Source: Salinibacterium sp. SWN248 (GTDB taxonomy: Bacteria > Actinomycetota > Actinomycetes > Actinomycetales > Microbacteriaceae). Taken from it: a stretch of DNA of 64,000 bases. A model generated the notes under the pieces. That model saw only the letters and a list, made by a program, of their open reading frames with translations, did no database searches and was not told where the DNA came from. Each line of letters starts with the position of its first letter. Within the stretch, counting starts at the first letter, position 1. The stretch is from assembly GCF_015864575.1 (NCBI RefSeq), contig NZ_JADYWW010000002.1, forward strand, positions 124,001-188,000, in the 5' to 3' direction. Positions 43,262-62,517 of this stretch are shown in pieces. A program made the position numbers and the translations under genes.

Positions 43262-43321
43262 GAAACCCCTCCTGCACACGGACACACAGCGCGCGGTGGC
43301 ACGCTAGAAACGAGTCTAAGT

Positions 43322-43359
43322 CAGAAGGGCCGCTCCCCGAGTGGGGAACGGCCCTTCTG
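43322..43359 (-). terminator. Terminator after the peptide ABC operon
   Basis: Arms 43322-43338 and 43343-43359 (CAGAAGGGCCG... with ...CGGCCCTTCTG) pair almost perfectly around GAGT, directly after the ATPase stop codon. The second binding-protein gene lies beyond it. Confidence 0.8.
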
Positions 43360-43369
43360 CACCGAGAAA

Positions 43370-45121
43370 CTAGGCGCCGAGTGTGATGTTGGCGCCGGGG
43401 ATCGCTTCGAGCAATTCCTGTGTGTAGGGATTGCTGGAGTTCTCAAAGACCTCGTCTGTTGATGCGGCTTCTACGATGCGGCCACCCTGCATGACGCAGA
43501 CGTTATCCGCGACCAACCGCACGACAGCAAGGTCGTGGGTGATGAACAGGTAGGTCAAATCGAGCTCAGTCTGCAGTTCGGTGAGCAAGTTGAGAACTTG
43601 CCCCTGAACCAGCACATCGAGCGCCGACACTGCTTCGTCAAGCACCAGAACTTCTGGCTTGAGCGCCAACGCCCGAGCGATAGCCACCCGCTGACGCTGA
43701 CCACCGGAGAGTTCGCCGGGGTAACGATGACGTGCGGCCTGCGGAAGCGAGACCTGATCAAGCAATTCGCTCACGCGCTTGAAACGCTCTTTCGCTGTGC
43801 CCAGCTTATGAGCCAGCAGGGGCTCAGCGATCGTGTTGCCTACGCTGTATTGCGGATCGAGCGAACCGTAGGGATCTTGGAACACGGGCTGTACACGGCG
43901 ACGGAACTCGAGGAGCTCCTGTCCCTTGATTCCGGCAAGGTCTTTGCCATCGAACTCGATGGTTCCGCTCGTGAGGGACTCAAGTTGCAGAATCAGCTTG
44001 GCCACCGTGGACTTGCCAGAACCAGACTCTCCAACCAGGGCGGTCGTCGTGCCTTTCTTGACGCCGAACGAGATGTCGTTGACTGCGAGGAGCTTGTCCT
44101 TGCGGAACCCCTGCTTGCGAATCTCGTAGACCTTGGTGATGTTGCTTACCTTGATCAGGTCTTGATCTGCCGCCGCTTCTCGAGTCGCAGCTCGAGCAAT
44201 GAGGGCCTCATCGAGCGATCCTTCCCCGAAAATCTTCGGGGCTTCGCCGTCGGGGCTCGACGTCTTGATCGATTGAATACGACGCGATGCCAAGCTCGGC
44301 GCCGCAGAAACAAGACGCTGAGTGTAAGGATGCTGCGGGTTCTCAAGAATCTCCCGCGACGGGCCTGACTCAACAACCTTGCCCTTGTACATCACCACGA
44401 GCTGTTCTGCGCGCTCCGCGGCAAGGCCGAGGTCGTGCGTGATGAACAACACTGACGTGCCGTAGTCTCGCGTGAGCGTTTGCAGGTGATCGAGGATCTG
44501 ACGTTGCACCGTGACGTCGAGTGCTGAGGTCGGCTCGTCGGCGATCAGGAGCTTCGGGCGGGCGGAGAGCCCGATACCGATGAGTACGCGCTGGCGCATT
44601 CCTCCCGAGAACTGATGGGGGTACTGTTTCAGGCGCTCGCTCGCGTCGCTCAGACCAGCTTCCTGCAGCACTTCGATAGTGCGCTCTCTCGCTTGTTTGC
44701 CTTGAGCAAGCCCGTTGGCCCTGATCGCCTCTTCGACTTGAAAGCCGATGCTCCAGACGGGGTTCAGGTTCGACATGGGGTCTTGGGGAACGTAACCGAT
44801 CTGGCTACCGCGCACTTCAGCGAACTGAGCGTCAGTGAAGGTAGAAAGATCGTTTCCCTCGAACTCAATCGAACCGCCGACGACCTTTCCGGCGCCGGGA
44901 AGAAGCCCGATGACAGCTTGGGCCGTCGTGGACTTGCCCGATCCGGATTCGCCAACGATCGCCAACGACTGCCCTTGGTAGAGCGTGAGGTCGACACCAC
45001 GCACGGCGGAAACTATTCCGCGCTGCGTTTCGAAGCCCACTTCGAGCCCGCGGATTTTCAGCAGCGGGGTTTCTTCGGTAGAAGCGTCAGGAGTCACTGG
45101 AACTGTTTCTGGATTGGTCAT
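43370..45121 (-). CDS. Double ABC ATPase of an oligopeptide importer (DppD-DppF fusion)
   Basis: A 583-residue fusion of two ABC ATPases. Domain 1 has GESGSGKSTTAQAV, signature FSGGMRQR and LLIADEPTSALD; domain 2 has GESGSGKSTVAKLIL, LSGGQRQRVAIA and LVLDEAVSALD. Each ends with an oligopeptide-type extension (NPQHPYTQRL, NPYTQELLEAIPG). In other bacteria these are two proteins; here one polypeptide supplies both sites. ATG overlaps the permease stop (ATGA). Note that the second Walker B Asp-Glu is followed by Ala rather than Pro. Confidence 0.94.
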   Translation of the reverse strand: MTNPETVPVTPDASTEETPLLKIRGLEVGFETQRGIVSAVRGVDLTLYQGQSLAIVGESGSGKSTTAQAVIGLLPGAGKVVGGSIEFEGNDLSTFTDAQFAEVRGSQIGYVPQDPMSNLNPVWSIGFQVEEAIRANGLAQGKQARERTIEVLQEAGLSDASERLKQYPHQFSGGMRQRVLIGIGLSARPKLLIADEPTSALDVTVQRQILDHLQTLTRDYGTSVLFITHDLGLAAERAEQLVVMYKGKVVESGPSREILENPQHPYTQRLVSAAPSLASRRIQSIKTSSPDGEAPKIFGEGSLDEALIARAATREAAADQDLIKVSNITKVYEIRKQGFRKDKLLAVNDISFGVKKGTTTALVGESGSGKSTVAKLILQLESLTSGTIEFDGKDLAGIKGQELLEFRRRVQPVFQDPYGSLDPQYSVGNTIAEPLLAHKLGTAKERFKRVSELLDQVSLPQAARHRYPGELSGGQRQRVAIARALALKPEVLVLDEAVSALDVLVQGQVLNLLTELQTELDLTYLFITHDLAVVRLVADNVCVMQGGRIVEAASTDEVFENSSNPYTQELLEAIPGANITLGA

Positions 45122-46077
45122 CGGCGTGCTCTCGCTTCCGGGTCAAGGGCATCGCGAACTACGTCGCCGAACATGAGGAAGGCGAGAACGGTGATCGACA
45201 GCGCAGCCGAGGGCAGCAACAGGGTCTGCGGATGCGTGCGAACCGTTACTTGCGCCTGGTTGATCTCGTTTCCCCACGACATCACGGTCGGGGGCAGGCC
45301 GATTCCGAGGAACCCCAGCGTCGCTTCAGCAACGATGAAGATACCCAGCGACACGGTCGCTACGACGATTACCGGCGCGATTGCGTTGGGCACGACGTGG
45401 CGCACGAGTGTCTTGAATCGCGAGACACCGAGTGCTGCTGACGCAGTGACGTAGTCAGAGTTGCGTGCCGAGAGAACTGCACCACGCATGATTCGAGCGA
45501 TCTGTGGCCACGCAAAGAGCGACAGCACGAGCGAGACCGTCAGAGCATCGCGAACCGAGATAACCGAGAACAGAACGATTGCTCCGAGAACGGTGGGGAC
45601 AGCGAAGAAGACGTCACCAAGACGCGAGACGATCGAATCGAGGAGCCCGCCATAGAAGCCAGCAAGAGCTCCGATGACGCCGCCGAAGAGCGTGACGATC
45701 ACGGTGGTTAGCAGACCGATCGTTACCGAAGCCTGCGTTCCGAAGATGATTCGCGAGTAGACGTCGCAGCCTTGACGGTTGAACCCGAGCGGATGACCGG
45801 CCTGCGGATCGCCATTGCTGAACTTCAGGTAGCACTCGCGTGGATCGACGCTCGCAAACAATCCAGGGAACAGGGCGACGATGAGGATCACGAAGATGAG
45901 ACTGGAGGAAATCCAGAACATAGGACGACGACGCATGGCCTCCCACGCATCGGTCCATGTGCTGCGAGCCTTGCCGGTTTCGTCAACCTGATCGACCTCG
46001 GCTACCGGGGTTTCCGCCAGCGAGGCGATGAAGTGTTCTTGACCGGGCCGCTGGCGGCCAGTGTTGTTACTTTGCAT
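45118..46077 (-). CDS. Oligopeptide ABC permease (DppC/OppC type)
   Basis: A 319-residue permease. A first membrane helix (MFWISSSLIFVILIVALFPG) is followed by the DppC loop DPRECYLKFSNGDPQAGHPLG and by five helices. The cytoplasmic EAA motif appears as ALGVSRFKTLVRHVVPNAIAPVIV. It overlaps the DppB-type gene by 11 nt upstream and the ATPase by 4 nt downstream. Confidence 0.94.
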   Translation of the reverse strand: MQSNNTGRQRPGQEHFIASLAETPVAEVDQVDETGKARSTWTDAWEAMRRRPMFWISSSLIFVILIVALFPGLFASVDPRECYLKFSNGDPQAGHPLGFNRQGCDVYSRIIFGTQASVTIGLLTTVIVTLFGGVIGALAGFYGGLLDSIVSRLGDVFFAVPTVLGAIVLFSVISVRDALTVSLVLSLFAWPQIARIMRGAVLSARNSDYVTASAALGVSRFKTLVRHVVPNAIAPVIVVATVSLGIFIVAEATLGFLGIGLPPTVMSWGNEINQAQVTVRTHPQTLLLPSAALSITVLAFLMFGDVVRDALDPEARARR

Positions 46078-46996
46078 AACGAATCCTTGGGTCGAGCGCG
46101 GCGTAGAGCAAGTCGACGAGCAAGTTGGCGAGCACGAAGATGATGACCATCACTGCAACGAACGAGACGACTGTGGGGCCTTCTCCCAACGTGATTGCTC
46201 GGTAGACGGTTCCACCGACACCGTTAATGTTGAAGATTCCTTCAGTTACGATCGCGCCGACCATGAGCGAACCGATGTCGACACCCAGGTAGGTGACGAC
46301 GGGAACGAGCGAGTTCCGCAGAACGTGCACGGTAACAACACGACGTCGAGAAAGTCCCTTCGCCGTGGCGGTGCGCACAAAGTCAGCGTTGAGGTTGTCT
46401 GCGACGCTCGCACGAGTAAGCCGCACGATGTAGGCAAACGACACCGAGGCCAGCACGATCGCGGGCAAGATCAACTCGCCCCAGGGGGCCGAGCCGCTCA
46501 CCGTTGTTCTCGCCCAGCCAAGCTGGATACCGAAGACGAATTGCAGCACGAATCCAACCACGAAGGTGGGGACCGAAATGAGCAGAAGGCTGATGACAAG
46601 AGCGGAAGCGTCGAAGAGCTTTCCCTTGCGAAGACCAGCAACGAGACCAACGATGATTCCGAAGAAGGCTTCGATCGCGAGCGCAAGAATGGCGAGGCGG
46701 GCAGTGATCGGGAAGGCCTGAGCCATGACATCAACCACGGGGCGACCCGAGAAGGTGGTTCCGAGATCACCCTGGAACAGTCCGCCAATGTAGAGCAGGT
46801 ACTGAACGAGGAACGGCTTGTCGAGGTTGTACTCGGCCCGAATAGCTTCGATCACTCCCGGAGCTGGCGGGTGGTCGCCGTACAGAGCGGCGATGGGATC
46901 GCCAGGAACGGCGAAAACCATGAAGTAGATCAGAAAGGTCGCGCCGAAAAATACGGGGATCATCTGAAGGAAACGCTTGCCGGCGTACCACAGCAT
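46067..46996 (-). CDS. Oligopeptide ABC permease (DppB/OppB type)
   Basis: A 309-residue permease of the DppB family, with the N-terminal helix MLWYAGKRFLQMIPVFFGATFLIYFMVF-like pattern (first helix residues 8-29), a periplasmic loop with YNLDKPFLVQYLLY and DLGTTFSGRPV, five more helices and the EAA loop KGLSRRRVVTVHVLRNSLVPVV. It forms the pore together with the next gene. ATG 46996 has GAGGA upstream. A 137-bp gap with two hairpins separates it from the binding-protein gene. Confidence 0.94.
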   Translation of the reverse strand: MLWYAGKRFLQMIPVFFGATFLIYFMVFAVPGDPIAALYGDHPPAPGVIEAIRAEYNLDKPFLVQYLLYIGGLFQGDLGTTFSGRPVVDVMAQAFPITARLAILALAIEAFFGIIVGLVAGLRKGKLFDASALVISLLLISVPTFVVGFVLQFVFGIQLGWARTTVSGSAPWGELILPAIVLASVSFAYIVRLTRASVADNLNADFVRTATAKGLSRRRVVTVHVLRNSLVPVVTYLGVDIGSLMVGAIVTEGIFNINGVGGTVYRAITLGEGPTVVSFVAVMVIIFVLANLLVDLLYAALDPRIRYAK

Positions 46997-47040
46997 TAGA
47001 TGGTTTCCTCGGAGGAACGGATAAGCATAAGAGTCACAAT

Positions 47041-47093
47041 CACTGAATGAGGGTACTCAGTGTAATGCCCGGGGCCAAAGCAGCCCCGGGCAT
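47041..47093 (-). promoter_or_regulatory. Intra-operon hairpins between binding protein and permease genes
   Basis: An 11-bp perfect stem, ATGCCCGGGGC (47065-47075) with GCCCCGGGCAT (47083-47093), and an adjacent CACTGA/TCAGTG stem (47041-47046, 47057-47062). Such hairpins commonly reduce read-through and stabilise the upstream mRNA, so the binding protein exceeds the permeases. Confidence 0.65.
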
Positions 47094-47133
47094 CACACGT
47101 TGAGAGTGGAAACTGGGTAAACCGATGAACTAC

Positions 47134-48744
47134 TTAGTTCTTGGTTACCTCGTTGTACAGCGGGACAGAGTCCCAACCGAATACAACGTTGTCAACGCTG
47201 TCAGAGTAGACACCGGTGACGTTGGAGTACCACAGCGGGATCGAAGGAAGGTCGACCAAGAGAACTTCTTGAGCTTCCTGGTACTTCGCTGTTGCCTCTT
47301 CTACCGAAGTTGCACTAGCACCCTCAGCAAGGATGGCTTCGAACTCGGGGCTCGAGTAGCCTTCCTTGTTCGAGCCAGCGCCATCAACGTAGAGCGGGCC
47401 GAGGAAGTTGTACAGCGACGGGTAGTCAGCTTGCCATCCAGCACGAGTTCCACCGGTGAGTGCGTTAGCGTCACGGTCGTTGAGTGCGTCAGCGAACGTG
47501 GGGTATGCCTTGCCCTGAGCTTCGATTCCGAGCGAGTTGCTGATGCTGTTAGCAACAGCGTCAACCCATGCCTGGTGTCCGCCATCAGCGTTGTATGCGA
47601 GGTCGAAGACAGTGTCTCCGTACGGCGCAATTGCATCAGCTTCTGCCCACAGCTTCTTGGCCTCATCCGGGTTGAAGTCAAGAACTTCAGCACCAGCAAG
47701 GTTGTCGGAGTGACCAGCGATTACCGGCGAAGTGAAGTCGGTAGCGGGGGTACGGGTGCCCTGGAAGATGACATCCGTGATCTCAGCGCGGTCGATCGAC
47801 ATCGAGATCGCTGCACGACGCAGCTCTCCCTCTTCGCCCGACCAGTGCTCGAGGTAGTACGGCAGGTTGAACGCCTGGAAGATTGCTGCAGGCTGGTTCA
47901 CCGAACGACCCGGGAAGTCTGAATCGTAGGTAGCAAATGCCGAGTCGGGGACAGCATCGAGGATATCGAGGTTGCCACCGAGAGCGTCAGCGTATGCCGC
48001 GTCCTGGCTGGTGTAGAAGATGATCGAAACGCCACCGTTGGCGGGCGTACGAACACCGTCGTAGTCAGGGTTCGTGACGAGGTCGATCTGTACGTCGTGC
48101 TGCCAAGCGCCTTCTTCGGCGAGCATGTACGGACCGTTACCGATGGGGTTCTCGCCGAAAACGTCGAGGTCTTCCCATGCAGCCTCAGGCAGCGGCATGA
48201 ATGCCGAGTAGCCGAGACGCAGCGGGAAGTCTGCTTCAGGGTTGATGAGAGCAACGGTGAACTCAGTGTCGCTTACAGCGTCAAGACCGGTAAGTTCTGA
48301 CTCTTCGTCGTAGCTGAAGCCTTCGATGTTGTCGAAGAAGTACGAGGAGCTCTGTGCGTTGCTGAGGAGCGCGCCGTACTGCCAGGCCTTAATGAAGGAG
48401 TCCGATGTGACGGGCTCACCGTTAGTGAAGGTCCAGCCCTCGTTGAGCGTGACGGTCCAGTTTTGGCCATCCTCAGACTCGATCGACTGAGCAACTTCGT
48501 TTTCTACATCGCCATCGGCGGTGTACGAAACCAGACCAGCGAAGATCGAGGTAACAATCTTTCCACCGCCAGTTTCAGTGGTGTTCGTCGGAATGAGCGA
48601 CTGCTGCGGCTCGCTTCCGTTTGTGGTGATGATCGCGGCGCTGTCACCTTCGGCAGGCGCCTCGCTCGCCGAGCAGCCCGCAAGAGCGAGCGCTGAGGCT
48701 GACAGCAGTGCGACTGCACTGATGCCTATGCGTGATCTCTTCAA
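47134..48744 (-). CDS. Solute-binding lipoprotein of a peptide ABC transporter (family 5)
   Basis: A 536-residue family-5 binding protein. The signal ends with lipobox LAGC (about residue 23), then the lobe I signature VEDEVAQSIESEDGQNWTVTL, the YMLAEEGAWQHD motif and VSIIFYTSQD. It is the first gene of the dpp-like operon: binding protein, DppB, DppC, double ATPase. The start is TTG 48744 with AGGAGG 5 nt upstream, which decides the start despite the rare codon. The binding pocket cannot be assigned to a ligand. Confidence 0.92.
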   Translation of the reverse strand: MKRSRIGISAVALLSASALALAGCSASEAPAEGDSAAIITTNGSEPQQSLIPTNTTETGGGKIVTSIFAGLVSYTADGDVENEVAQSIESEDGQNWTVTLNEGWTFTNGEPVTSDSFIKAWQYGALLSNAQSSSYFFDNIEGFSYDEESELTGLDAVSDTEFTVALINPEADFPLRLGYSAFMPLPEAAWEDLDVFGENPIGNGPYMLAEEGAWQHDVQIDLVTNPDYDGVRTPANGGVSIIFYTSQDAAYADALGGNLDILDAVPDSAFATYDSDFPGRSVNQPAAIFQAFNLPYYLEHWSGEEGELRRAAISMSIDRAEITDVIFQGTRTPATDFTSPVIAGHSDNLAGAEVLDFNPDEAKKLWAEADAIAPYGDTVFDLAYNADGGHQAWVDAVANSISNSLGIEAQGKAYPTFADALNDRDANALTGGTRAGWQADYPSLYNFLGPLYVDGAGSNKEGYSSPEFEAILAEGASATSVEEATAKYQEAQEVLLVDLPSIPLWYSNVTGVYSDSVDNVVFGWDSVPLYNEVTKN

Positions 48745-48993: not shown

Positions 48994-49395
48994 ATGTCGC
49001 AACCGAGCCCGGCTTCCCGCACGCCCCAGTCCATACTGATCTTTGACGGTGACTGCGCATTTTGCACTCTCTGGGTCAATCGTTTGCAGGCCATTCTTCC
49101 GGTGTTTCCCGAAAGCACTCCTTGGCAATGGACCGATCTCGATGACTACGCGCTGACTCAGGACGACGTCGAAAAAGCAGCCTGGTTCGTGACTCCTACT
49201 CGACAGTTCGCTGGACACATGGCTTTCTCCGCCCTCCTCCGAATTCAGCCACAGATCGGATGGCGCTTCCTCGGCCACCTCATTGCCACTGAGCCATTCA
49301 GCACCATCGCCTCTCTCGGCTACCGCTTCGTCGCGCGCTACCGCCACCGTCTGCCCGGCGGAACGCCAGCCTGCGCCGTGCGCCCCTCCGCGTGA
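48994..49395 (+). CDS. DCC family thiol-disulfide oxidoreductase-like protein (DUF393)
   Basis: A 133-residue protein with the DCC motif DGDCAFCTLWVNRL (about residue 19; Asp-x-x-Cys-x-x-Cys). The C-terminal ASLGYRFVARYRHRLPGG is also typical of DUF393. Function is not fixed; redox activity is inferred from the cysteine pair. Its stop overlaps the CPBP protease start by 4 nt, coupling the two. ATG 48994 has TAACAT 6 nt upstream and no Shine-Dalgarno, consistent with leaderless initiation. Confidence 0.88.
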   Translation: MSQPSPASRTPQSILIFDGDCAFCTLWVNRLQAILPVFPESTPWQWTDLDDYALTQDDVEKAAWFVTPTRQFAGHMAFSALLRIQPQIGWRFLGHLIATEPFSTIASLGYRFVARYRHRLPGGTPACAVRPSA

Positions 49396-50174
49396 TTTCA
49401 ACACCAGCGCTTCCCCAATCGCGCGGGCGACTGTGGTCAGAAATATCGATCGTTCTTGCACTCTCGCTTGGAGCATCCGCGATCTATTCGATCGTCTCGA
49501 TCACGAACAGGCTGACCCGCACCGAATCGCTGTCGCAGCAAACCGCAACGCTGAACTCGTCACTCAGCACACGGCCAACTTTCGACCTGATCTACCAGTT
49601 GCTGGGAATCACCTTTGATCTCGCGCCCATCGCGCTCGTAGCGTTTCTCTTGTGGAACACCACAAAGCCTCGACTGTCGCGACTCGGAATCGACTTCACA
49701 CGACCGGTTCGCGATGGCCTGACCGGCGTCGCACTGGCACTAGCGATTGGAATCCCCGGAATTGCCGTGTACCTCGGCGGGCGTGCTCTCGGCGTCACCG
49801 TGAACGTGGTTCCGGCCGCACTCGACCAGTACTGGTGGACCGTGCCCGTGCTGCTGCTCTCGGCTCTGCGTGCCGGCATCACCGAAGAAGTCATCGTGAT
49901 CGGCTACCTGTACGCCCGACTCGGCGACCTTGGCTGGGGCCGGTGGCAGATCATTATCTCTACTGCAATACTGCGCGGCACGTACCACCTCTATCAGGGC
50001 ATCGGCGCGTTTATTGGCAATGTCGCCATGGGGTTGCTCTTTGGCTGGCTCTACACGCGCTATCGCCGCGTGTTGCCTCTCGTGATCGCCCACACGCTCA
50101 TCGACGCCGCGATCTTTGTCGGCTACGGCTGGGCTCTCGGCGCCTTCCCCGCGCTCTTCGGCACCACCGAATAA
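49392..50174 (+). CDS. CPBP family intramembrane glutamic endopeptidase
   Basis: A 260-residue membrane protease of the CPBP/CAAX (Abi) family with about seven helices. Signature residues: the Glu pair in AGITEEVIVIGYLYARLG (motif 1), RGTYHLYQGIGAFIGNVAMG (motif 2, Arg/His) and IAHTLIDA (motif 4, His). Such proteins act in prenyl-protein processing, bacteriocin immunity or signalling; the target is unknown here. GTG 49392 overlaps the DCC gene stop. Confidence 0.88.
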   Translation: MISTPALPQSRGRLWSEISIVLALSLGASAIYSIVSITNRLTRTESLSQQTATLNSSLSTRPTFDLIYQLLGITFDLAPIALVAFLLWNTTKPRLSRLGIDFTRPVRDGLTGVALALAIGIPGIAVYLGGRALGVTVNVVPAALDQYWWTVPVLLLSALRAGITEEVIVIGYLYARLGDLGWGRWQIIISTAILRGTYHLYQGIGAFIGNVAMGLLFGWLYTRYRRVLPLVIAHTLIDAAIFVGYGWALGAFPALFGTTE

Positions 50175-51176: not shown

Positions 51177-52934
51177 CTACGTGCAGTTCGGGCGACACGA
51201 CCGTTGACTCAGGGCATCCACGAGCACCTTGCCGAGGTCCTCGGGCACAGCAGCGGAATACGCTGCACCACCCGTCGACTGGGCAATCTCTGTCATTGAC
51301 TTGAGGTCAGTGTCGGGACCGAATCCGATCAAGATCACCGGAACGGGCTCATTCGGGTCGTCAATCGCCTTCAGGTTTTTCAGAAGCGCCGACAGGCTGA
51401 TGCCGTTGTCATCTTCGTTGTAGCCATCAGTAATGAGCAGAACCGAGTTGATCTTCGACGGGTCGTAATCTTCCTTGACCTCCTTGACCGCAGCCAAGAT
51501 GGTGTCATAGAGCCCCGTGTAACCGTAAATGCGATCCGGCAACGATGCGACGACGCCGTTGATCTGCGACACGTGAGCGGGATCAGACAGCGGCGCAATC
51601 GGCGACAGCGGTTCCCAGTCTTGGGTGCCGATACGGTTTTGCGAGAAGGCCCACACCCCCAGCTCGGCTTCACCCGAGAACTTTGACAGCGCCTCGCTTG
51701 CCGCAAGCTGGAACACGTCGATGCGGCGCAGGCCGTTACTCGCCGGGTCGAGCATGGAACCTGAAGTGTCAATGACAACGAGAAGTCGCGAACGAAGCGT
51801 CAGAACACTCCACGAGCGAAGAATCTCGATCTGGACGGCAGCATCCGCCGTCGGCTTCGCTTCGGTCGCTGTCTCGGGGACTCCTGTCACCCTCAAGTCA
51901 CCGCCGCCGTCAGCATCGCGGAACCCCTGCTTGGCCAAGACTTCAGCGGACAAGCGCGTCGCCGCAGCCAGTGCCGTCAAAAGCCGTTGGGGAGAGTCGG
52001 CCGCACTTATCTCGCTCGCCACTGCAGCAGAAGCCGTAGTAGACGTCGACGTGGCAGAAGCGGAAGTCTCCGCTGTCTCATCCCCGCTGATGACCTCAAC
52101 GAAGGGGTAGGTCAATTCGACCGTGCCGTCCGTCGGATACAGCGCAATCATGGGCGAGGACTCTGACGCACTGTTGTAGGTGGCAACTTCTCGTTCCGTT
52201 GTCACGACAACGGTGGGCAGCGTTGCATCAGTCGCCAGCCCGAAGGCCTCTTCGGACGTCTGGGGAATTGTCTTTCCCATGGCGATCATGGCGCCGGCGA
52301 ACTGGCGCGGATCTTCAGCAGACGAGACCGACTGGAGCTGCGCAAGCCCGGCAAGACTCGCGGTATTCGCCTCGGGATCGGGCACAAGGGTCGTTACGGT
52401 TCCGGTGAGCAGTGATTCCCACGACAGCGGGGTGTCTCCGAGTTTGGCTACTTGGGACGCCGATGTGGCCAGCACGACGGGGGTACTCGCGACGTAGTCG
52501 GTGATCTCGAGCTCGGGAGCAGTGCGCCCGAGCGAATCAGCCATCGACGTAACGCGATCAAGCCAGGCCGCCGAATCGGGAACCCACGCATCAAGATCGC
52601 CCGCAACACCCGAAGCGAACAGCGCAGCAGTGTCTGCGGAGACGAGTGAACGCACTTCGGTCTCGGTGCAGTTGCCGTCAGCCTCATCGAACTCCGCCGC
52701 GACAATGGTCAGCGCGGGAGCAATCGACGGGTCAGCCGCAATCACCACAGGGCGAGTCTCAGTGCAGCCGCCAGCGAGAGGCGCAACAGCGTTGGAAATC
52801 CACCCAATTGCACCCAATTGGATGCCAGCGAGCGAGAGCGCAGCAATAGCAACCAGCGCAATAGGCGCCAGCCACCAGCGTTTCTTCCACCGCTGCCAAA
52901 AGGTCTTACGGTGTCGATGCCGTCGGGTGGTCAC
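51177..52934 (-). CDS. Membrane-anchored solute-binding-like and von Willebrand A domain protein, paralogue 1
   Basis: A 585-residue protein. A basic N-terminus and one membrane helix (about residues 22-44) expose a solute-binding-protein-like domain (about 55-310; VVIAADPSIAPALTIVAA, PDSAAWLDRV, ELTYPFVEV). A VWA domain (about 390-575) has a full MIDAS: DTSGSM, the Thr in GYTGLYDT and Asp in LITDGYNEDDNG. It ends with LSQRSCRPNCT, two cysteines. A paralogue with the same plan lies at 60742. Function is not known; external metal-dependent protein binding is likely. GTG 52934 has GGAG 7 nt upstream. Confidence 0.85.
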   Translation of the reverse strand: MTTRRHRHRKTFWQRWKKRWWLAPIALVAIAALSLAGIQLGAIGWISNAVAPLAGGCTETRPVVIAADPSIAPALTIVAAEFDEADGNCTETEVRSLVSADTAALFASGVAGDLDAWVPDSAAWLDRVTSMADSLGRTAPELEITDYVASTPVVLATSASQVAKLGDTPLSWESLLTGTVTTLVPDPEANTASLAGLAQLQSVSSAEDPRQFAGAMIAMGKTIPQTSEEAFGLATDATLPTVVVTTEREVATYNSASESSPMIALYPTDGTVELTYPFVEVISGDETAETSASATSTSTTASAAVASEISAADSPQRLLTALAAATRLSAEVLAKQGFRDADGGGDLRVTGVPETATEAKPTADAAVQIEILRSWSVLTLRSRLLVVIDTSGSMLDPASNGLRRIDVFQLAASEALSKFSGEAELGVWAFSQNRIGTQDWEPLSPIAPLSDPAHVSQINGVVASLPDRIYGYTGLYDTILAAVKEVKEDYDPSKINSVLLITDGYNEDDNGISLSALLKNLKAIDDPNEPVPVILIGFGPDTDLKSMTEIAQSTGGAAYSAAVPEDLGKVLVDALSQRSCRPNCT

Positions 52935-53086
52935 GAACGTCTCCAGTCGGTGAAACAGCGATTTGGGGTTGTCGGGTCAACCACTCGCCGTACACCAGAC
53001 GCACATTACAACATCCGGAGAGGGAAAATCCAGCCAAAGTGAAGAATTTTCTCCACAGGAGAGGCCGATGCCAGATGAATACTGGT

Positions 53087-53104
53087 GTCCCACTTTCGGG
53101 GGAC
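53087..53104 (-). repeat. 18-nt inverted repeat upstream of VWA paralogue 1
   Basis: On the minus strand: GTCCCCCGAAAGTGGGAC, a 7-position stem with one mismatch and GAAA loop. The same 18-nt plan occurs upstream of VWA paralogue 2 at 62540, with the second pair changed from T-A to A-T. It lies next to A/T-rich bases that could be a -10, so it may be an operator or leader hairpin. Confidence 0.5.
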
Positions 53105-53110
53105 AAAGTT

Positions 53111-53154
53111 ATGGCGCGTGCAGAACCGAACTGGATCGGTTCTGCACGCGCCAT
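53111..53154 (-). terminator. Terminator of the gcvTHP operon
   Basis: A perfect 19-bp stem (53111-53129 with 53136-53154) and 6-nt loop, 38 bp after the gcvP stop. A smaller 8-bp stem (53155-53162 with 53171-53178) lies just before it. The U tract is short, but stem strength is high. Confidence 0.85.
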
Positions 53155-53191
53155 TTTCCGTCTCAGAAGCGACGGAAACTAGCGCGATTTG

Positions 53192-56115
<2,924 letters not shown>

Positions 56116-56116
<1 letters not shown>

Positions 56117-56487
56117 TATTCGCCTGTCAGTGCGGTGTATTCGTCGAGGCTGAGCATCGACGGGAGTTCGGAGAATTCGATCTTCACGAGCCAGCCTTCA
56201 CCGAAGGGGTCGCTGTTAACGAGCTCGGGGCTATCGGCCACAGCGTCGTTGGACTCGACGACGGTTCCCGCAACGGGAGCGAAGAGTTCGCCCACCGACT
56301 TGGTCGACTCGATCTCGCCGACGATCTTGCCCTCGGCGACAGTGGCGCCGACCTTGGGGAGATCAACGAAGACGATGTCGCCGAGCTTTCCCGCGGCAAA
56401 GTCGGTGATTCCGACGGTTGCGACGTTTCCGTCAACCAGCACCCACTCGTGCTCGGCGGTGTACTTCAATTCGCTCTTCTCAGCCAT
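56116..56487 (-). CDS. gcvH: Glycine cleavage system H protein
   Basis: A 123-residue lipoyl carrier. The modified lysine lies in [18 protein letters not shown] (about residue 63), and [19 protein letters not shown] starts the hybrid-barrel fold. It shuttles the aminomethyl group between P, T and L proteins. Between gcvT and gcvP with a 2-nt gap and a 1-nt overlap. Confidence 0.95.
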
Positions 56488-56489
56488 GA

Positions 56490-57647
56490 TCAGGCCTCTC
56501 TCTTGTAGAAGGGTAGGGAAACAACGGATGCAGCAATGCGACTGCCCCGCACATCAATGTGAAGCTCGGTGCCGACCTCACTCACGTCGGAGTCGACGTA
56601 AGCCATAGCGATCGGGTGCCCCAGCGTTGGCGACAGCGCGCCGGAGGTGATGACTCCGACCTCGGTGTCACCGTGAAAAAGAAGGTAATCGGCGCGACCG
56701 GCGCGACGCCCCTCGGCAGCGAGACCGACGAGAACGCGAGCACCGGCATCCGGGCCCGCTTCGATCGCGCTGCGACCGACGAAGTCACCTTCCTTGCTGA
56801 GCGCGACGACGCGGCCAAGACCGGCTTGCACGGGGAAGGTGCCGAGGTTGAGTTCGTGTCCATACAGCGGCATGCCCGCTTCAAGGCGGAGAGTGTCTCG
56901 GCACGCGAGACCGGCGGGCACGAGACCGAGCGGTTCGCCGGCGACCGTGAGCGCTGCCCACAGGGCGGCTGCGGCATCCACGTGAATGTATAGCTCGAAG
57001 CCGTCTTCGCCCGTGTAGCCAGTGCGACCGATGAGGAGGTCGGTGCCGTTGAAGGTGGCCGCGGTTTCGCGGTAGTACTTGAGTTCGTCGAGCGGTGTCG
57101 CAAAGTCAGTGAGCCCCGCGGTCGCCTCGAGGATGGCACGCGAGACCGGCCCCTGAACGGCGATCAGCGCATAGTCGTCGCTCTCATCGGTGACCGCGAC
57201 CTCAAAGCCGACGGCCCGTTCAGTGAGCGCTGTTGCTGCGGCAAAGCGGTTTCCGGCATTGGCGACAACCAAGAAGTGGTCATCGGCGAGGCGATAGGTG
57301 ACGAGGTCATCGATGATGCCACCCGCCTCATTGAGCAACAGGCTGTACTTAGCCTGCGCAAGAGCGATGCTTGAGAGCTTTCCGGCAAGCGCGTAGTCGA
57401 GGTACGCGCCAGCGTCAGCGCCGCGCACGTGAATCTCGGCCATGTGCGAGATGTCGAAAATACCGGCAGCGGTGCGCACGGCATGGTGCTCGGCGAGGTC
57501 GGAGCTATACCGCACCGGCATCATCCAGCCAGCGAAATCGGTGAACGCAGCACCGAGTTGCTCATGGATGCTGTGCAGCGGTGAGTACCTCACCGCGGTG
57601 GGCGAAGATTCAGCAGATGAAGCTTCAGAACTTGATACATCGGTCAC
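56490..57647 (-). CDS. gcvT: Aminomethyltransferase (T protein)
   Basis: A 385-residue tetrahydrofolate-dependent enzyme. Visible are [15 protein letters not shown]-like N-terminal residues, [20 protein letters not shown], the catalytic Asp region with [18 protein letters not shown], and [14 protein letters not shown]. The start GTG 57647 has AGGAG 6 nt upstream; ATG 57665 is in frame but has no site. The leader contains a tandem glycine riboswitch, and its 3' end can pair with the sequence just before this start. Confidence 0.95.
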
Positions 57648-57683
57648 GGAGTTCTCCTGGCGCATGGGCTAGTGAATAGAACT

Positions 57684-57905
57684 CCCCCTCTGTGATGAGC
57701 CTGAGAGCTTCACACGCTAAACGCTAGCGAGCTTTCACCGTCGGCGGAACCTCAGGGTGATGCGAGGTTCTCTTTCCAGAGTGGCCAAGTGCGATGCGGT
57801 ACATGAACCTGAGAGATTGGCGGGGAGGCTTGCTCCTTCGGTGCCGGCCTAGCGCCTGCCAATTTCTGTTGACTAGCGCTGGGTGCCCGGCTCTCCCGCA
57901 TCGTG
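57684..57905 (-). ncRNA. Tandem glycine riboswitch controlling gcvT
   Basis: On the minus strand, two aptamers precede gcvT. Aptamer 1 (about 57905-57793) has GGGAGAGCC, the core CACCGAAGGAGCAAG and CTCTCAGGTTCATG. Aptamer 2 (about 57790-57684) has CCGACGGTGAAAGC and GCTCTCAGGCTCATCACAGA. These are the conserved glycine-riboswitch elements in tandem with a short linker. Glycine binding should raise glycine-cleavage expression. The remaining leader up to the start is short, so the switch probably works on translation. Confidence 0.93.
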
Positions 57906-58057
57906 TTGCGGCCCGATGTTCAGTTGTGAGTTCAGCATAGCAATGCGGGGCGGATGCTCGCGCCGATGAGCACGCCAAGAGCGAGCAATTCGTGCCTTTG
58001 GCCGACTGGTGCTCGGGTGGTCTACAGCGGCGGCCCGGATCGGCATCGGCGGTCGGG

Positions 58058-58489
58058 CTAGAGAAGTGCTGAGCTGAGCAACAAACTGGTCTCGCTGTTC
58101 ACGACGCCCTCCACATTGCGCATGCGGGCCAAGACACGGTCAAAGTTGCTCAGGCTGTCGGTGCGGATGTCGGCGACCAGATCCCACGCGCCATTGGTGG
58201 TGTGGAGTTCATGGATCTCGGGCAGGCCGCGCAGCTGGCTGATCACGGAATCCGTCGATCGCCCTTCTACCTCAACGAAGGCAATCGCCCGGATGAAAGA
58301 AGGGTCGCGGTCCTCTCTAATGCGGATCGAGAACCCGAGAACGGTGCCGTTGCTCACGAGGCGATCGATACGGCTTGTGACGGTCGCTCGCGTGACGTTA
58401 AGTCGACGCGAGAGGCTCGCCACTGACTCGCGCGCATCAGCTCGAAGGGCGGCTAAGAGGCGGCGATCAAGGTCATCTAAGTCAGACAT
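58058..58489 (-). CDS. Lrp/AsnC family transcriptional regulator
   Basis: A 143-residue regulator. The N-terminal helix-turn-helix (about residues 1-50) has DLDDLDRRLLAALRADAR and LSRRLNVTRATVTSRIDRLVSNG; the RAM ligand-binding domain (about 65-140) has AIAFVEVEGRSTDSVI and HTTNGAWDLVADIRTD. It is divergent from ocd-ctlX, so it likely senses an amino acid such as arginine or ornithine. ATG 58489 is preferred to an upstream TTG because TACAAT lies 6 nt before it, a consensus -10 in leaderless position. That -10 is inside a palindrome, suggesting autoregulation. Confidence 0.92.
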   Translation of the reverse strand: MSDLDDLDRRLLAALRADARESVASLSRRLNVTRATVTSRIDRLVSNGTVLGFSIRIREDRDPSFIRAIAFVEVEGRSTDSVISQLRGLPEIHELHTTNGAWDLVADIRTDSLSNFDRVLARMRNVEGVVNSETSLLLSSALL

Positions 58490-58620
58490 GAACAAATTGT
58501 ACAATTCTGCCTCCCATTATGCATAGTTATTGGCCGGAAATAGGGTTGACTGGGAGTTGTAGATACATAGTGCATATTCGTAACGTAGGAAGCTCTAATA
58601 CCGCAACGAAAGGAGTGACC
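58490..58620. promoter_or_regulatory. Lrp-ocd divergent control region with palindromes
   Basis: ATTGTACAAT (58496-58505) is a perfect palindrome over the Lrp -10. TATGCATA (58518-58525) is a second palindrome, and TGCATA recurs at 58571-58576 near TTGACT (58546-58551), a possible ocd -35. The repeated A/T-rich dyads fit Lrp binding sites for both promoters. Confidence 0.65.
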
Positions 58621-59652
58621 ATGGTTCACTACGTAGACGTCAACAACATGCGCCGCTGGATTGCCGACACCGGCATCGAGCCGATCATTATGGGCATCGT
58701 GGGTTACCTCGAACAGGATTATGCCAAGTGGCCCCAGTTCGACAAGTCACCTCGCGTTGCCGCTCACTCCCCTGAAGGCGTCATCGAATTGATGCCGACA
58801 AGTGATGGCGAAACGTATGGCTTCAAGTACGTCAACGGCCACCCTTCCAACCCTGCACTGGGCTTCCAGACCGTCACCGCGCTCGGCATGCTTGCTCGCG
58901 TCGACAACGGCTACCCCACCTTCTTCTCGGAGATGACTCTGCTCACGGCGCTGCGCACCTCTGCGACATCCGTCATGGCGGCGCGCGCTCTCGCCCGCCC
59001 CGACTCGAGCGTTCTCGCCCTCATCGGCACCGGCACTCAGTCTGAGTTCCAGGCACTCGGCTTCCGCGCTGGCCTCGGCATCACGAGCCTGCGCGTCTGG
59101 GACACCGACCCTGCTGCGATGGACAAATTCATTCGTAATGTGGAGCCGCTCGGTTTCGAGATCGTACGCGCAACCTCAGCAGCAGATGCTGTTGCGGGCG
59201 CCGACATCGTCACGACCTGCACCGCAGACAAGAAGAACGCGACGATCCTCACGGCCGACATGATCGAACCAGGAATGCACCTCAACGCCATTGGCGGAGA
59301 CTGCCCGGGCAAGACAGAACTCGAAGAGGCCATCGTGCGCAGCTCGACCGTGTTTGTCGAGTTCCCCGAGCAGACCCGCATCGAGGGAGAAATTCAGCAG
59401 GTCGAAGCTGACTCCCCCATCACCGAGCTGTGGGAAGTTCTCGCCGGAACGGCTGCCGGCCGCACGTCTGCCGAAGAAGTAACCCTCTTCGACTCCGTTG
59501 GCTTCGCGATTGAAGACTTCTCGGCGCTGCGCTATGTCTTCGATGCCGTTCGCGACACCGACTACGCCACCGACCTTGACCTGATTGCCGACCCGGCTGA
59601 TCCCAAGGACCTGTTCTCGCTCGTATCGCGCGTTCCTGCGCTGACCGCATAA
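58621..59652 (+). CDS. ocd: Ornithine cyclodeaminase family protein
   Basis: A 343-residue enzyme of the ornithine cyclodeaminase/mu-crystallin family. The NAD-binding motif is ALIGTGTQSEFQALGF (about residue 130), followed by RVWDTDPAAMDKF; the C-terminus carries MHLNAIGGDCPGKTEL, with the family's catalytic Asp. It converts ornithine to proline and ammonia. The frame is open from 58519, but ATG 58621 with AAAGGAG 5 nt upstream is the start. Next to CtlX and a divergent Lrp it completes a route from arginine or citrulline to proline. Confidence 0.92.
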   Translation: MVHYVDVNNMRRWIADTGIEPIIMGIVGYLEQDYAKWPQFDKSPRVAAHSPEGVIELMPTSDGETYGFKYVNGHPSNPALGFQTVTALGMLARVDNGYPTFFSEMTLLTALRTSATSVMAARALARPDSSVLALIGTGTQSEFQALGFRAGLGITSLRVWDTDPAAMDKFIRNVEPLGFEIVRATSAADAVAGADIVTTCTADKKNATILTADMIEPGMHLNAIGGDCPGKTELEEAIVRSSTVFVEFPEQTRIEGEIQQVEADSPITELWEVLAGTAAGRTSAEEVTLFDSVGFAIEDFSALRYVFDAVRDTDYATDLDLIADPADPKDLFSLVSRVPALTA

Positions 59653-59659
59653 ACCACCG

Positions 59660-60652
59660 GTGAGCGTTCAAGCCCCAACGGCCGCTGTTCTCATCCGCCC
59701 GCACCGATTCACACCGAATAGCCAAACTGCGGGCGACAACGCCTTCCAGTCGACAGATCCCAGCCGAACCCCGGATGAGATCGCTCGCGCCGCGTACGAC
59801 GAATCCACCCAGGTGGCCGAGACGTTGCGTGACGCGGGCGTGAACATCCACGTGTTCGAGGATGAGGAGAGCACGCGCCCCGACAGTGTGTTCCCGAACA
59901 ACTGGTTCTCGACACACAGTGGTGGCCGCGTTGCCGTGTACCCGATGTATGCGCCGAACCGCCGCACGGAACGACGTACCGATGTCATCGAGATGTTGAA
60001 GCACGACTTTCGGGTGCAGGATGTTGTCGATTATTCCGGCCTGGAACACGACGGCATCTACCTCGAGGGCACCGGCGCGATGGTCATCGACCACACCAAC
60101 CGGGTGGCGTATGCGGCTGAGTCGCACCGCGCCAACCCGCTCGCATTAGAGCGGTTCTGCGCTTCGTTTGGCTACGAGCCGATGATGTTTGAGGCCCGCG
60201 ATAGCCATGGTGTGCCGATTTATCACACCAACGTCATGATGTGCATCGCGACCGATTTCGCCATGATCGGTCTCGACCTGATCGCCTCGGGAGACCGCCG
60301 TATGGAGATGGCTGAACGCTTGACCGCTCCGGGCCGCACTCTGATCGACCTCACCGCTGATCAGATTGCGAACTTCGCGGGCAATGCTCTCGAGCTGAAG
60401 ACTCCGAACGGCCGCATCTTGGCACTCTCTACCCGCGCGCTCGCGAGCCTCACTCGCGCTCAGCGCTCGGTGATCGAAGCGAGTTGCGAGATCGTGCCGC
60501 TGGATATTCCGACGATTGAGTTGGCTGGCGGATCTGTGCGCTGCATGGTGGCCGGCATCCATTTGGATCGCCGTTCACGCATGGCGGCCGATGTTGCCGC
60601 CGGCGTTCCTGCTGCCGGCGCTGCCGAAACAGCCCCGACAGCAGGCGCCTAG
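59660..60652 (+). CDS. ctlX: CtlX-type amidinotransferase-fold hydrolase (arginine/citrulline dihydrolase-like)
   Basis: A 330-residue member of the guanidine-modifying (GME) superfamily. Landmarks: VFPNNWFSTH (substrate loop), the EGTGAMVIDH region with the catalytic acid, YHTNVMMCIATDF (catalytic His) and the nucleophile Cys in GGSVRCMVAGIH near the end. It resembles CtlX, reported to release ornithine from citrulline or arginine. It follows ocd by 7 nt. The GTG start at 59660 lacks a clear ribosome binding site, so it may depend on coupling. Confidence 0.88.
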   Translation: MSVQAPTAAVLIRPHRFTPNSQTAGDNAFQSTDPSRTPDEIARAAYDESTQVAETLRDAGVNIHVFEDEESTRPDSVFPNNWFSTHSGGRVAVYPMYAPNRRTERRTDVIEMLKHDFRVQDVVDYSGLEHDGIYLEGTGAMVIDHTNRVAYAAESHRANPLALERFCASFGYEPMMFEARDSHGVPIYHTNVMMCIATDFAMIGLDLIASGDRRMEMAERLTAPGRTLIDLTADQIANFAGNALELKTPNGRILALSTRALASLTRAQRSVIEASCEIVPLDIPTIELAGGSVRCMVAGIHLDRRSRMAADVAAGVPAAGAAETAPTAGA

Positions 60653-60657
60653 CCAAT

Positions 60658-60693
60658 CTGTGGCGGAAGCGGGTCCCTCCGCTTTCGCCACAG
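60658..60693. terminator. Bidirectional terminator between ctlX and VWA paralogue 2
   Basis: CTGTGGCGGAAGCGG (60658-60672) pairs with CCGCTTTCGCCACAG (60679-60693), with one G-T wobble and a 6-nt loop, between convergent genes. Confidence 0.8.
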
Positions 60694-60741
60694 ACCGCAG
60701 CAACCTGCGACACCGGTGGTGCCGCAGGTGCTGGGCGTTCG

Positions 60742-62517
60742 CTAACTGCAGTTCGGGCGGCAGTCGCGCTGTGACAACGCCTCGAGCATCACATTGCTGA
60801 GCTCGGTGGGGTTGTTTGCTTGGTAGGCCGTTCCACCGGTGACCTGGGCGATCTTTCGCATCGCCTCGACGTCGGTGTCTGGCCCAATTCCGACGAGCAC
60901 CACGGGAACGGGCTCGTCGGTGTTCTTGTCGATCATCGCGTTCAGTTCGTCGACCAGTTTCTCCAAGGAGATGCCGTTGTCGTCTTCGTTGCGACCGTCG
61001 GTGATGAGGATCACCGAGTTGACTTTGTCGGGGTTGAAGTCTTCACGCACGTGGGTGACCGCAGCCAGAACGGTGTCGTTGAGTCCGGTGTAGCCGTTGA
61101 TACGCGACGGCAGTGTGTCGATGATCGCCTGAAGGCTCTCGACATGCTCGGGGTCATTCATCGAGCGGATGCCCGCGACATCTTCCCAGTCTTCAGTGCC
61201 GACTCGCTCCTTGGAGAAGAGCCACATGCCCAGCTCGTCATCCTCCGAGAGAGTGCTGAAGGCATCCTCCGCGGAGTTTTGGAACATCTCAATGCGGCGC
61301 TGACCATCCCAGGCCCGCTCAAGCATGGAACCAGAGACGTCAACGACGGTGAGGATGCGCGAGCGAAGGTTGAGGGCGTTCCAGTTGCGCAGGATGCTAA
61401 CGAGTTCGTCGGTGTCTCCGACGGTCTTGGTGGCCACCGGGGCTGCGATGACACCGGACGCGAGGATCTCCCCCTCACCGGCGTTGTCGCGGAAGCCTTC
61501 GGCGTTCAAAACCTGAGATGAGCCTCGGACGAGGTCAGCAAATTCCTCGAGGAGTTTCGTGCGGGAGGTCTCAAGCTCGGCGAGTTCTGTGCGCTCTTCT
61601 TCCGTCATCCGCGATGCTTCGAGCTCGGTGACTCCCGAGCTATCTACGACCACAAAGGGGTAGGTGAGGGCAACGGTGCCTTCGGACGGGTACAGCGCCA
61701 CCAGGGGCTCATCAGGGCTCGACGCGTTGTGTTCCACAATCTCGCGCTCGGTCGCGAGAGCAACCATGCGGGAATCGGAGATCTGAAGCTCGGTGAACGC
61801 TGCCTTAGTGGAATCAGGAATCGAGCGCCCCAGATTCATCAGCACTCGATCGAAGTCAGCAGGGTCAGTGTCGGCGGCAAGATCATTGAGCGTAGCCAGC
61901 GCGATCATGCTCGCTGATGACGACTCGGGATCGGGCAGCAACGTGCGGTAGCGGCCGTCGAGGATTGCACCCCAGCCCACCTCAGACGCTTCGAACTCCG
62001 CGACCTTCACGGCCGGGGTTGCCAGCACGAGCGGGCTTGAGGCGATCGAATCCCACTCTTGAATTTTGGGGATTTCGCGGCCGAGAGCAGTCGCTGTGCT
62101 CTCCACTCGGTTGAGCCAGATCGGCGAATCAGGGATCCAGGCGTCGGCACCAGTGGAGGTGCCGGATGCCAGCAACGCGGCAGTATCCGCGGAGCGCTGC
62201 GTCACGATCTTGACGGAGAGGCACTGGCCAACGTGCTCAGCGTTGAAAGCATTCGCAACCGTTTGGACGGTCGACGAGATGGTGGGATCGGTGACGACGA
62301 CGAGTTCGGTTGCGTTCGGGCATCCGAAAGTCTGGGCCACAAAATCGTCGAGCTTGTTCTGGGCGGCCAGCGCTACGAGAGCGCCACCACCGGCGAGGGA
62401 CAAAGTGAGCAGGGTTGCGAGGGCGGGTGTACTAGCGCGGAGGAACCAGGATTTAATTGTTCTGGAACGGTGGCGAGGTCGGGACACAGGGGGACTCCAT
62501 CGATCACGGGTGCTCAT
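60742..62517 (-). CDS. Membrane-anchored solute-binding-like and von Willebrand A domain protein, paralogue 2
   Basis: A 591-residue protein with the same plan as the gene at 51177. One membrane helix (about residues 30-52) is followed by a solute-binding-like domain (about 65-320; VVVTDPTISSTVQTVANAFN, PDSPIWLNRVES, TYPFVVVDSSG). The VWA domain (about 395-580) has VVDVSGSM, GYTGLNDT and LITDGRNEDDNG, a complete MIDAS. It ends with LSQRDCRPNCS. The conserved cysteines (two in the binding domain, two at the end) may form disulfides. The start is ATG 62517, with no strong ribosome site. Function unknown. Confidence 0.85.
   Translation of the reverse strand: MSTRDRWSPPVSRPRHRSRTIKSWFLRASTPALATLLTLSLAGGGALVALAAQNKLDDFVAQTFGCPNATELVVVTDPTISSTVQTVANAFNAEHVGQCLSVKIVTQRSADTAALLASGTSTGADAWIPDSPIWLNRVESTATALGREIPKIQEWDSIASSPLVLATPAVKVAEFEASEVGWGAILDGRYRTLLPDPESSSASMIALATLNDLAADTDPADFDRVLMNLGRSIPDSTKAAFTELQISDSRMVALATEREIVEHNASSPDEPLVALYPSEGTVALTYPFVVVDSSGVTELEASRMTEEERTELAELETSRTKLLEEFADLVRGSSQVLNAEGFRDNAGEGEILASGVIAAPVATKTVGDTDELVSILRNWNALNLRSRILTVVDVSGSMLERAWDGQRRIEMFQNSAEDAFSTLSEDDELGMWLFSKERVGTEDWEDVAGIRSMNDPEHVESLQAIIDTLPSRINGYTGLNDTVLAAVTHVREDFNPDKVNSVILITDGRNEDDNGISLEKLVDELNAMIDKNTDEPVPVVLVGIGPDTDVEAMRKIAQVTGGTAYQANNPTELSNVMLEALSQRDCRPNCS

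What the first reader, a model, noticed from the sequence alone, without database searches (positions are those of the whole stretch)
51177..62517. Two paralogous proteins fusing a solute-binding-like domain to a VWA/MIDAS domain
Genes at 51177-52934 and 60742-62517 share the plan: basic N-terminus, one membrane helix, binding-protein-like domain, VWA domain with complete MIDAS, and the end LSQR(S/D)CRPNC(S/T). Both flank the gcv and Lrp-ocd-ctlX loci. No permease, MoxR ATPase or secretion partner adjoins either. A surface receptor that senses a ligand and presents a metal-dependent adhesion site is a reasonable idea, but no function is known to me.
Basis: partly seen in the sequence, partly recalled or inferred. 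Interest (0 to 1): 0.75.

Follow-up and report, generated by a model that had tools for sequence, protein, structure and literature searches.

The report
Twin membrane proteins of cell-envelope family
Two sister membrane proteins in this actinobacterium join a molybdate-binder-like domain to a metal-site (VWA) domain; they belong to a widespread, unexplained actinobacterial family whose gene neighbours and mycobacterial relative hint at upkeep of the cell envelope.

Summary
Both genes are on the minus strand (51177-52934, 60742-62517), 43% identical, and the only two copies found in the genome. Each has a basic N-terminus, one membrane helix, a ModA-like binding domain, a VWA domain with complete MIDAS, and a CRPNC tail.

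They are not orphans. The family was found in 127 of 296 sampled genomes of the class; one Streptomyces relative is already annotated 'substrate-binding and VWA domain-containing protein'. By gene order the mycobacterial member sits where I recall Rv1836c, a gene that published screens tie to the FhaA interactome, a cell-division gene and multi-drug hypersensitivity.

Copy A lies beside gcvP, as relatives do in three lineages (20 of 80 chosen genomes). In the other main clade the gene lies on the same strand within 3.4 kb of PspA in 16 of 73 chosen genomes (9 families), 15 of them with a coiled-coil membrane protein and at least three with MurJ. The main text of the 2024 PSP survey does not mention VWA.

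Best reading: a membrane-anchored, extracytoplasmic part of envelope maintenance.

The parts
51177..52934 (-). copy A, 585 aa, GTG start; SBP-VWA protein
52806..52862 (-). membrane helix of A (residues 25-43)
   Evidence: hydropathy peak 2.27
51888..52772 (-). ModA-like solute-binding domain of A
   Evidence: limits from alignment A3; ModA profile match of the family; no Pfam SBP hit for A alone
51192..51794 (-). VWA domain of A with DxSxS...T...D MIDAS
51180..51197 (-). C-terminal CRPNCT of A
   Evidence: C-x-P-x-C tail in 25 of 99 family rows
60742..62517 (-). copy B, 591 aa from ATG; start uncertain, GTG at 62487 possible
62368..62424 (-). membrane helix of B (residues 32-50)
   Evidence: hydropathy peak 1.92
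61459..62328 (-). ModA-like solute-binding domain of B, with C66 and C99 (C in 95 and 97 of 99 rows)
   Evidence: Pfam SBP_bac_11 E 8e-12
60757..61365 (-). VWA domain of B with complete MIDAS
   Evidence: Pfam VWA E 7e-13
60745..60762 (-). C-terminal CRPNCS of B
53192..56116 (-). gcvP, recurrent neighbour in three lineages (context)
49392..50174 (+). CPBP/Rce1-like membrane protease, recurrent neighbour (context)
   Evidence: Pfam PF02517 E 3e-18
53111..53154 (-). 19-bp perfect hairpin between gcvP and copy A, possible end of the gcv transcript
   Evidence: -44.2 kcal/mol for the 71-nt fold, z -8.9; arms exact; the pattern scan reported no terminator there

Best explanation
Copies A and B are lineage-specific duplicates of an actinobacterial family of membrane-anchored extracytoplasmic proteins that help keep the cell envelope sound. 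Shown by sequence: one membrane anchor, a ModA-type binding domain with a conserved cysteine pair, and a VWA domain with an intact metal site. Inferred: the domains face outward; the binding domain takes up a small envelope-derived or medium solute; this changes how the VWA domain, through its bound metal, holds an acidic residue of a partner protein; and the complex acts with the cell-wall growth and membrane-repair machinery (PspA, MurJ/FhaA-type partners).
For: PspA (PF04012) lies within 3.4 kb of the family gene in 16 of 73 chosen genomes, from 9 families (recounted in 96); the 16 fetched loci all show the same strand. About 0.3 genomes would be expected by chance (my estimate, not corrected for relatedness). 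15 of the 16 loci carry a related membrane protein with an N-terminal hydrophobic stretch of two-helix length. MurJ was confirmed in 3 of 3 candidates tested (L147, L177, L179) and AAA plus AAA_lid_6 in 5 of 5 tested, nearest SpoVK, EccA and CbbX but under those cut-offs. By gene order (GuaB1, CNNM, malate synthase G, this gene, haloalkane dehalogenase, gcvP, OdhI/GarA, gcvH) the Mycobacterium-like member is the one I recall as Rv1836c. Passages: Rv1836c/MSMEG_3641 in the FhaA interactome, whose list also holds the flippase MviN (PMC11898655); insertions depleted without rv0954 (PMC8093794); mutants hypersusceptible to all four drugs in M. avium (PMC8557931); hypomorph sensitive to five of six drugs (PMC8486102); rifampin tolerance (PMC10534295).
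Against: The window copies are in the other main clade from the PspA-linked ones, and this genome's own PspA is on another contig. In 57 of the 73 genomes no PspA lies close (five have none; contig ends may hide some). The Mycobacterium-like members have a broken MIDAS (L128-L130) and two related f22 rows have lost its Thr (L133, L134); Pfam VWA scores are weak in the two tested, so their data may not carry over. Multi-drug hypersensitivity can be indirect. In the window's genus only 7 of 24 other genomes carry the family. No structure, ligand, topology or partner was tested.
Confidence: 0.5

Rival explanations
1. Surface receptor or adhesin: the binding domain senses a ligand and the VWA domain binds an external surface.
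For: Intact MIDAS in 87 of 99 rows; one N-terminal membrane anchor.
Against: The nine window neighbours scanned with Pfam include no pilus or sortase family; anchoring motifs were not searched for. MIDAS lost in Mycobacterium-like members and in one of two tandem copies in four loci (L025, L027, L152, L153).
Confidence: 0.12
2. Sensor tied to glycine/one-carbon metabolism: the binding domain reads an amino acid and the gene travels with gcvP.
For: Family gene within 26 kb of gcvP in 20 of 80 chosen genomes: 6 of 7 in f1, 8 of 8 in f21, 6 of 8 in f22 (with places; recounted for 23 genomes); about 1 expected by chance (my estimate). A glycine riboswitch lies before gcvT.
Against: 60 of 80 show no such linkage. 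A 19-bp hairpin separates gcvP from A. Intervening genes and orientation differ between lineages. The binding domain matches ModA, not an amino-acid binder.
Confidence: 0.12
3. Binding protein of an ABC importer that has become tethered and gained a VWA domain.
For: ModA-like fold; an oligopeptide-type importer lies 2.4 kb from A; one Microbacteriaceae copy follows an ABC ATPase and two permeases (L080); Geodermatophilaceae copies lie near what looks, by eye, like a branched-chain amino-acid importer.
Against: The importer near A has its own SBP_bac_5 proteins; the transporter types differ between lineages; no transporter gene is directly beside A or B.
Confidence: 0.08
4. VWA arm of an AAA+/VWA remodelling pair, like MoxR-VWA systems.
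For: AAA+ related to SpoVK, EccA and CbbX near the PspA-linked genes, 5 of 5 tested.
Against: The AAA+ protein would be cytoplasmic while the VWA domain is inferred to be outside; no such gene is beside the window copies.
Confidence: 0.08

Closest known systems
'Substrate-binding and VWA domain-containing protein', Streptomyces sp. NBC_00564 plasmid NZ_CP107787.1
   Same: Same two domains by name; tblastn match to residues 264-582 of B, 28.5% identity over 54%.
   Different: No function given. It is one of four plasmid records matched; two others are named 'VWA domain-containing protein' and one has no annotation there.
Rv1836c / MSMEG_3641 (mycobacteria; identified by gene order and recall)
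   Same: SBP_bac_11 domain plus VWA-like domain, gcvP neighbourhood, same side of the main split of the tree.
   Different: Long acidic N-terminal region in L128 and L129; MIDAS residues lost; Pfam VWA under cut-off.
E. coli ModA (1amf, 3axf)
   Same: Profile match over the whole binding domain.
   Different: The family has a conserved Glu (E257, 95 of 99 rows) about where I recall ModA's Tyr170; no transporter partner directly beside either gene.
MoxR-VWA / Bat proteins
   Same: VWA domain with MIDAS, membrane anchor; weak NCBIfam matches of B to BatA and PRK13685.
   Different: 10.8 and 16.3 bits against cut-offs of 380 and 432; no MoxR nearby.
Actinobacterial PSP systems (PspA-PspM; Ravi et al. 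2024, PMC11237479, passages read)
   Same: In one clade the gene sits with PspA and a small coiled-coil-like membrane protein.
   Different: VWA and Willebrand do not occur in that paper's main text (supplements not read). The membrane protein is not shown to be PspM (hhalign probability 49).

Membership tests
Actinobacterial SBP-VWA family | N-terminal anchor, SBP_bac_11/ModA-like domain, C-terminal VWA in one chain | tested here: met
Actinobacterial SBP-VWA family | conserved Cys pair in the binding domain (C66, C99 of B) | tested here: met
   C in 95 and 97 of 99 rows; pairing itself not tested
ABC-transporter substrate-binding protein | permease and ATPase encoded directly with it | tested here: not met
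   a peptide-type importer with its own binding proteins lies 2.4 kb from A
ModA molybdate-binding protein | same fold | tested here: met
   by sequence profile only
ModA molybdate-binding protein | molybdate-contact residues (recalled set) | tested here: inconclusive
   read by eye; Ser12 and Ser39 positions are Ser/Thr in the window copies, Tyr170 position is Glu
VWA domain with complete MIDAS | DxSxS, T, D | tested here: met
   both copies; 87 of 99 rows; metal binding not tested
MoxR-associated VWA proteins | MoxR AAA+ gene adjacent | tested here: not met
PSP envelope-stress system | encoded with PspA | tested here: not met
   not in this genome; met in 16 of 73 chosen genomes, all in the other clade
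Orthologue of Rv1836c | shared genomic position near gcvP and same side of the tree | tested here: inconclusive
   position shared; branches around the f22 rows have 88-90 support; H37Rv itself was not searched
Adhesin | binds a surface or matrix | not testable with these tools
   -

The most novel reading that the evidence does not exclude
The family is the missing outside arm of an actinobacterial PspA/MurJ envelope-repair system: the ModA-like domain binds a cell-wall precursor or breakdown product, the VWA domain docks on a partner through its metal, and the signal passes through a small coiled-coil membrane protein to PspA. The free-standing copies in Salinibacterium, Streptomyces and mycobacteria would be dispersed parts of the same system.
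Probability: 0.15. Interest if true: 0.8.

Novelty: new variant of a known kind. Interest (0 to 1): 0.5.

Why it matters
The family was found in 127 of 296 sampled genomes of the class, own genome included, yet I found no paper on its function (searches of an open-access library only). Placing the window pair, the Streptomyces protein and the Rv1836c-type protein in one family gives a testable frame for a gene that recurs in drug-susceptibility screens. The PspA/MurJ/AAA+ neighbourhood, with PspA linkage seen across nine families, is a concrete lead that the main text of the 2024 PSP survey does not mention.

Tried and rejected
Fold and cysteine pairing are therefore unproven; I used profile search against PDB sequences instead; single-sequence searches found no SBP hit.

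gcvP as functional partner: proximity recurs, but order, orientation and intervening genes differ, and a hairpin separates gcvP from A. Kept as a positional marker and a weak rival.

CPBP protease as partner: within 0.5 kb of the family gene in 10 of 80 chosen genomes (8 in f21, G058, G104) and 1.0 kb away in the window, but in five f1 genomes it sits beside gcvP instead, so it may track that region.

PspM identity of the small membrane protein: hhalign probability 49, E 1.7e-4 over 70 columns. Not accepted.

A first gene caller chose wrong frames in GC-rich loci; gene orders used for GC-rich loci come from the corrected version.

Literature: searches listed nothing; two listed eleven papers each, none of which I opened. 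Of nine papers holding Rv1836c I read passages of six; three were not opened. Of five holding MSMEG_3641 only PMC11898655 was opened.

Counting notes: searches (69 of 297; 96 of 396) use E 1e-3 and include VWA-only matches, so I rely (E 1e-20). For some searches I chose 80 genomes for strong, placed matches: 7 of 8 positives in f1, 8 of 13 in f21, 8 of 14 in f22; for I chose 73 from the class and phylum positives. Neither choice was random. Taxon names for G handles are my inference; f1/g1 is tied to Salinibacterium by equal contig lengths. For the tree I dropped the rows of 10 loci, mostly near-identical, keeping 99 of 109; its 18 'PspA-linked' rows include L168, whose contig ends before any PspA, and a second copy in L141. 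Alignment A3 left out 6 of the 30 loci (L021, L023, L036, L040, L044, L048). A6 was not used further.
Full report
1. The observation. The two genes lie on the minus strand at the given coordinates and both are chosen by a codon-usage gene call, which starts B later, at 62403. The proteins are 43% identical, E 2e-160, and no third copy was found in the 3.05 Mb genome. Pfam gives VWA in both and SBP_bac_11 in B only. The start of B is uncertain because two close relatives have no start codon before its codon 11. No permease, MoxR or secretion gene is directly beside either copy; an oligopeptide-type ABC importer at 41459-48744 lies 2.4 kb from A, beyond four called genes.

2. The domains. A profile of 26 rows matches E. 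coli ModA to the end of its binding domain, E 3e-7 to 6e-7, and several VWA proteins over the C-terminal half. The binding-protein fold is supported by sequence, although no model could be built. The MIDAS residues are invariant in those 26 rows and complete in 87 of 99 rows of a broader set. The cysteines C66 and C99 of B are present in 95 and 97 of 99 rows, so a disulfide in the binding domain is likely. The tail C-x-P-x-C occurs in 25 of 99 rows: f1 and Humibacter rows, the f107 rows, and one copy of the tandem pairs in L025, L027, L152 and L153. It marks part of the family, not this pair alone.

3. Spread. Hits at E 1e-20 occur in 127 of 296 sampled genomes of the class, own genome included. 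Named contigs include Salinibacterium, Humibacter, Geodermatophilus, Modestobacter, Nocardiopsis, Streptomonospora and Flexivirga (its one cyanobacterial hit is VWA only). A Streptomyces plasmid relative is annotated 'substrate-binding and VWA domain-containing protein'. In the window's own genus 7 of 24 other genomes have it, four with two copies and three with one. Seven of the eight genomes with the most similar gcvP (91-99%) are the carriers; the fifteen at 76-80% lack it.

4. Family tree. In a quick maximum-likelihood tree of 99 rows, A and the B-type rows are sisters within the f1 group (SH-aLRT 96). One branch (97) separates a set of 30 rows that holds every row labelled PspA-linked from a set of 69 that holds every row labelled gcvP-linked, among them the window pair, the f21 (Streptomyces-like) and f22 (Mycobacterium-like) rows. 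Deep branches within the second set have 88-90 support. Some rows have long branches, and the tree is midpoint-rooted for drawing only.

5. Neighbourhoods. gcvP lies within 26 kb of the family gene in 20 of 80 chosen genomes: 6 of 7 in f1 (own genome included), 8 of 8 in f21, 6 of 8 in f22 (with places; recounted in 96). My chance estimate is about one genome. The 80 were picked for strong placed matches, so the rate is not an estimate for the family. In f22 the gene order (GuaB1, CNNM proteins, malate synthase G, this gene, haloalkane dehalogenase, gcvP, OdhI/GarA, gcvH, names tested on L128) is the one I recall for Rv1836c. The CPBP protease, which has two genes between it and A, is directly beside the family gene in the 8 f21 genomes and in G058 and G104. 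Between gcvP and A lies a 19-bp perfect hairpin, so A is probably not read from the gcv transcript that starts at the glycine riboswitch; the pattern scan did not flag it as a terminator.

6. The envelope lead. PspA lies within 3.4 kb of the family gene in 16 of 73 chosen genomes, from nine families (f36, f47, f55, f60, f63, f75, f86, f90, f99, recounted in 96), on the same strand in all 16 fetched loci. In 15 of the 16 a related small membrane protein lies between them (L183 has a protein there that the profile did not match); all 16 members of alignment A4, which adds L168, have an N-terminal hydrophobic stretch of two-helix length. Pfam finds MurJ in 3 of 3 candidates tested and AAA plus AAA_lid_6 in 5 of 5 tested; these AAA+ proteins score best with SpoVK, EccA and CbbX models but under their cut-offs. 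A second, VWA-less SBP-like protein precedes the gene in several loci, with weak support (Pfam E 0.003 in L177; 25-30 bits against the family profile in three loci). The PSP survey PMC11237479 has no 'vwa' or 'willebrand' in its main text and limits PspM to mycobacteria and corynebacteria (passages; supplements not read).

7. Mycobacterial data (passages only). MSMEG_3641/Rv1836c is in Table 1 of the FhaA interactome, and the flippase MviN is in the same list (PMC11898655). rv1836c insertions are depleted in a strain without rv0954 (PMC8093794). Mutants in the M. avium gene that those authors call its homologue are hypersusceptible to all four drugs tested (PMC8557931). The hypomorph appears for five of six drugs (PMC8486102), the gene in rifampin tolerance (PMC10534295), and it is listed as 'IS' in an isoniazid study (PMC8613195). 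These fit a weakened envelope but do not prove it. The equation of those genes with L128-L130 rests on gene order and my recall of locus numbers.

8. Against my reading. L128-L130 have lost the MIDAS and L133 and L134 its Thr; the two Mycobacterium-like proteins scanned score under the Pfam VWA cut-offs. The window pair is not in the PspA-linked set, its PspA gene is on another contig, and 57 of the 73 genomes show no close PspA. So the function proposed for A and B is an inference from relatives. What they bind, and whether the VWA domain adheres to anything, is unknown.

9. Verdict. What is new here, as far as my searches go, is the family-level link to PspA, MurJ and AAA+ genes and to the gcvP region.

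Noticed in passing
window 57787-57908 (-): Glycine riboswitch aptamer (RF00504, 60.7 bits) upstream of gcvT.
   Followed up: no
window 53111-53154 (-): 19-bp perfect inverted repeat just after gcvP; the 71-nt fold has z -8.9.
   Followed up: partly
window 41459-48744 (-): Oligopeptide-type ABC importer with two SBP_bac_5 proteins, two permeases and a double ABC ATPase, 2.4 kb from copy A.
   Followed up: no
L025, L027, L152, L153: Tandem SBP-VWA pairs in which one copy has lost the MIDAS and the other keeps it.
   Followed up: partly
L128-L130: Mycobacterium-like members with a degenerate MIDAS and, in L128 and L129, a long acidic N-terminal region.
   Followed up: partly
L143, L147, L174, L176-L182: AAA+ (Pfam-tested in five: L143, L174, L177, L180, L182) and an SBP-like protein without VWA near the SBP-VWA gene and PspA; the SBP-like protein is an unnamed family.
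   Followed up: partly
L147 4677-6263, L177 9054-10685, L179 8531-10363: Lipid II flippase MurJ between the small membrane protein and PspA.
   Followed up: partly
window 49392-50174 (+): CPBP/Rce1-like protease whose relatives sit beside gcvP or beside SBP-VWA genes.
   Followed up: partly
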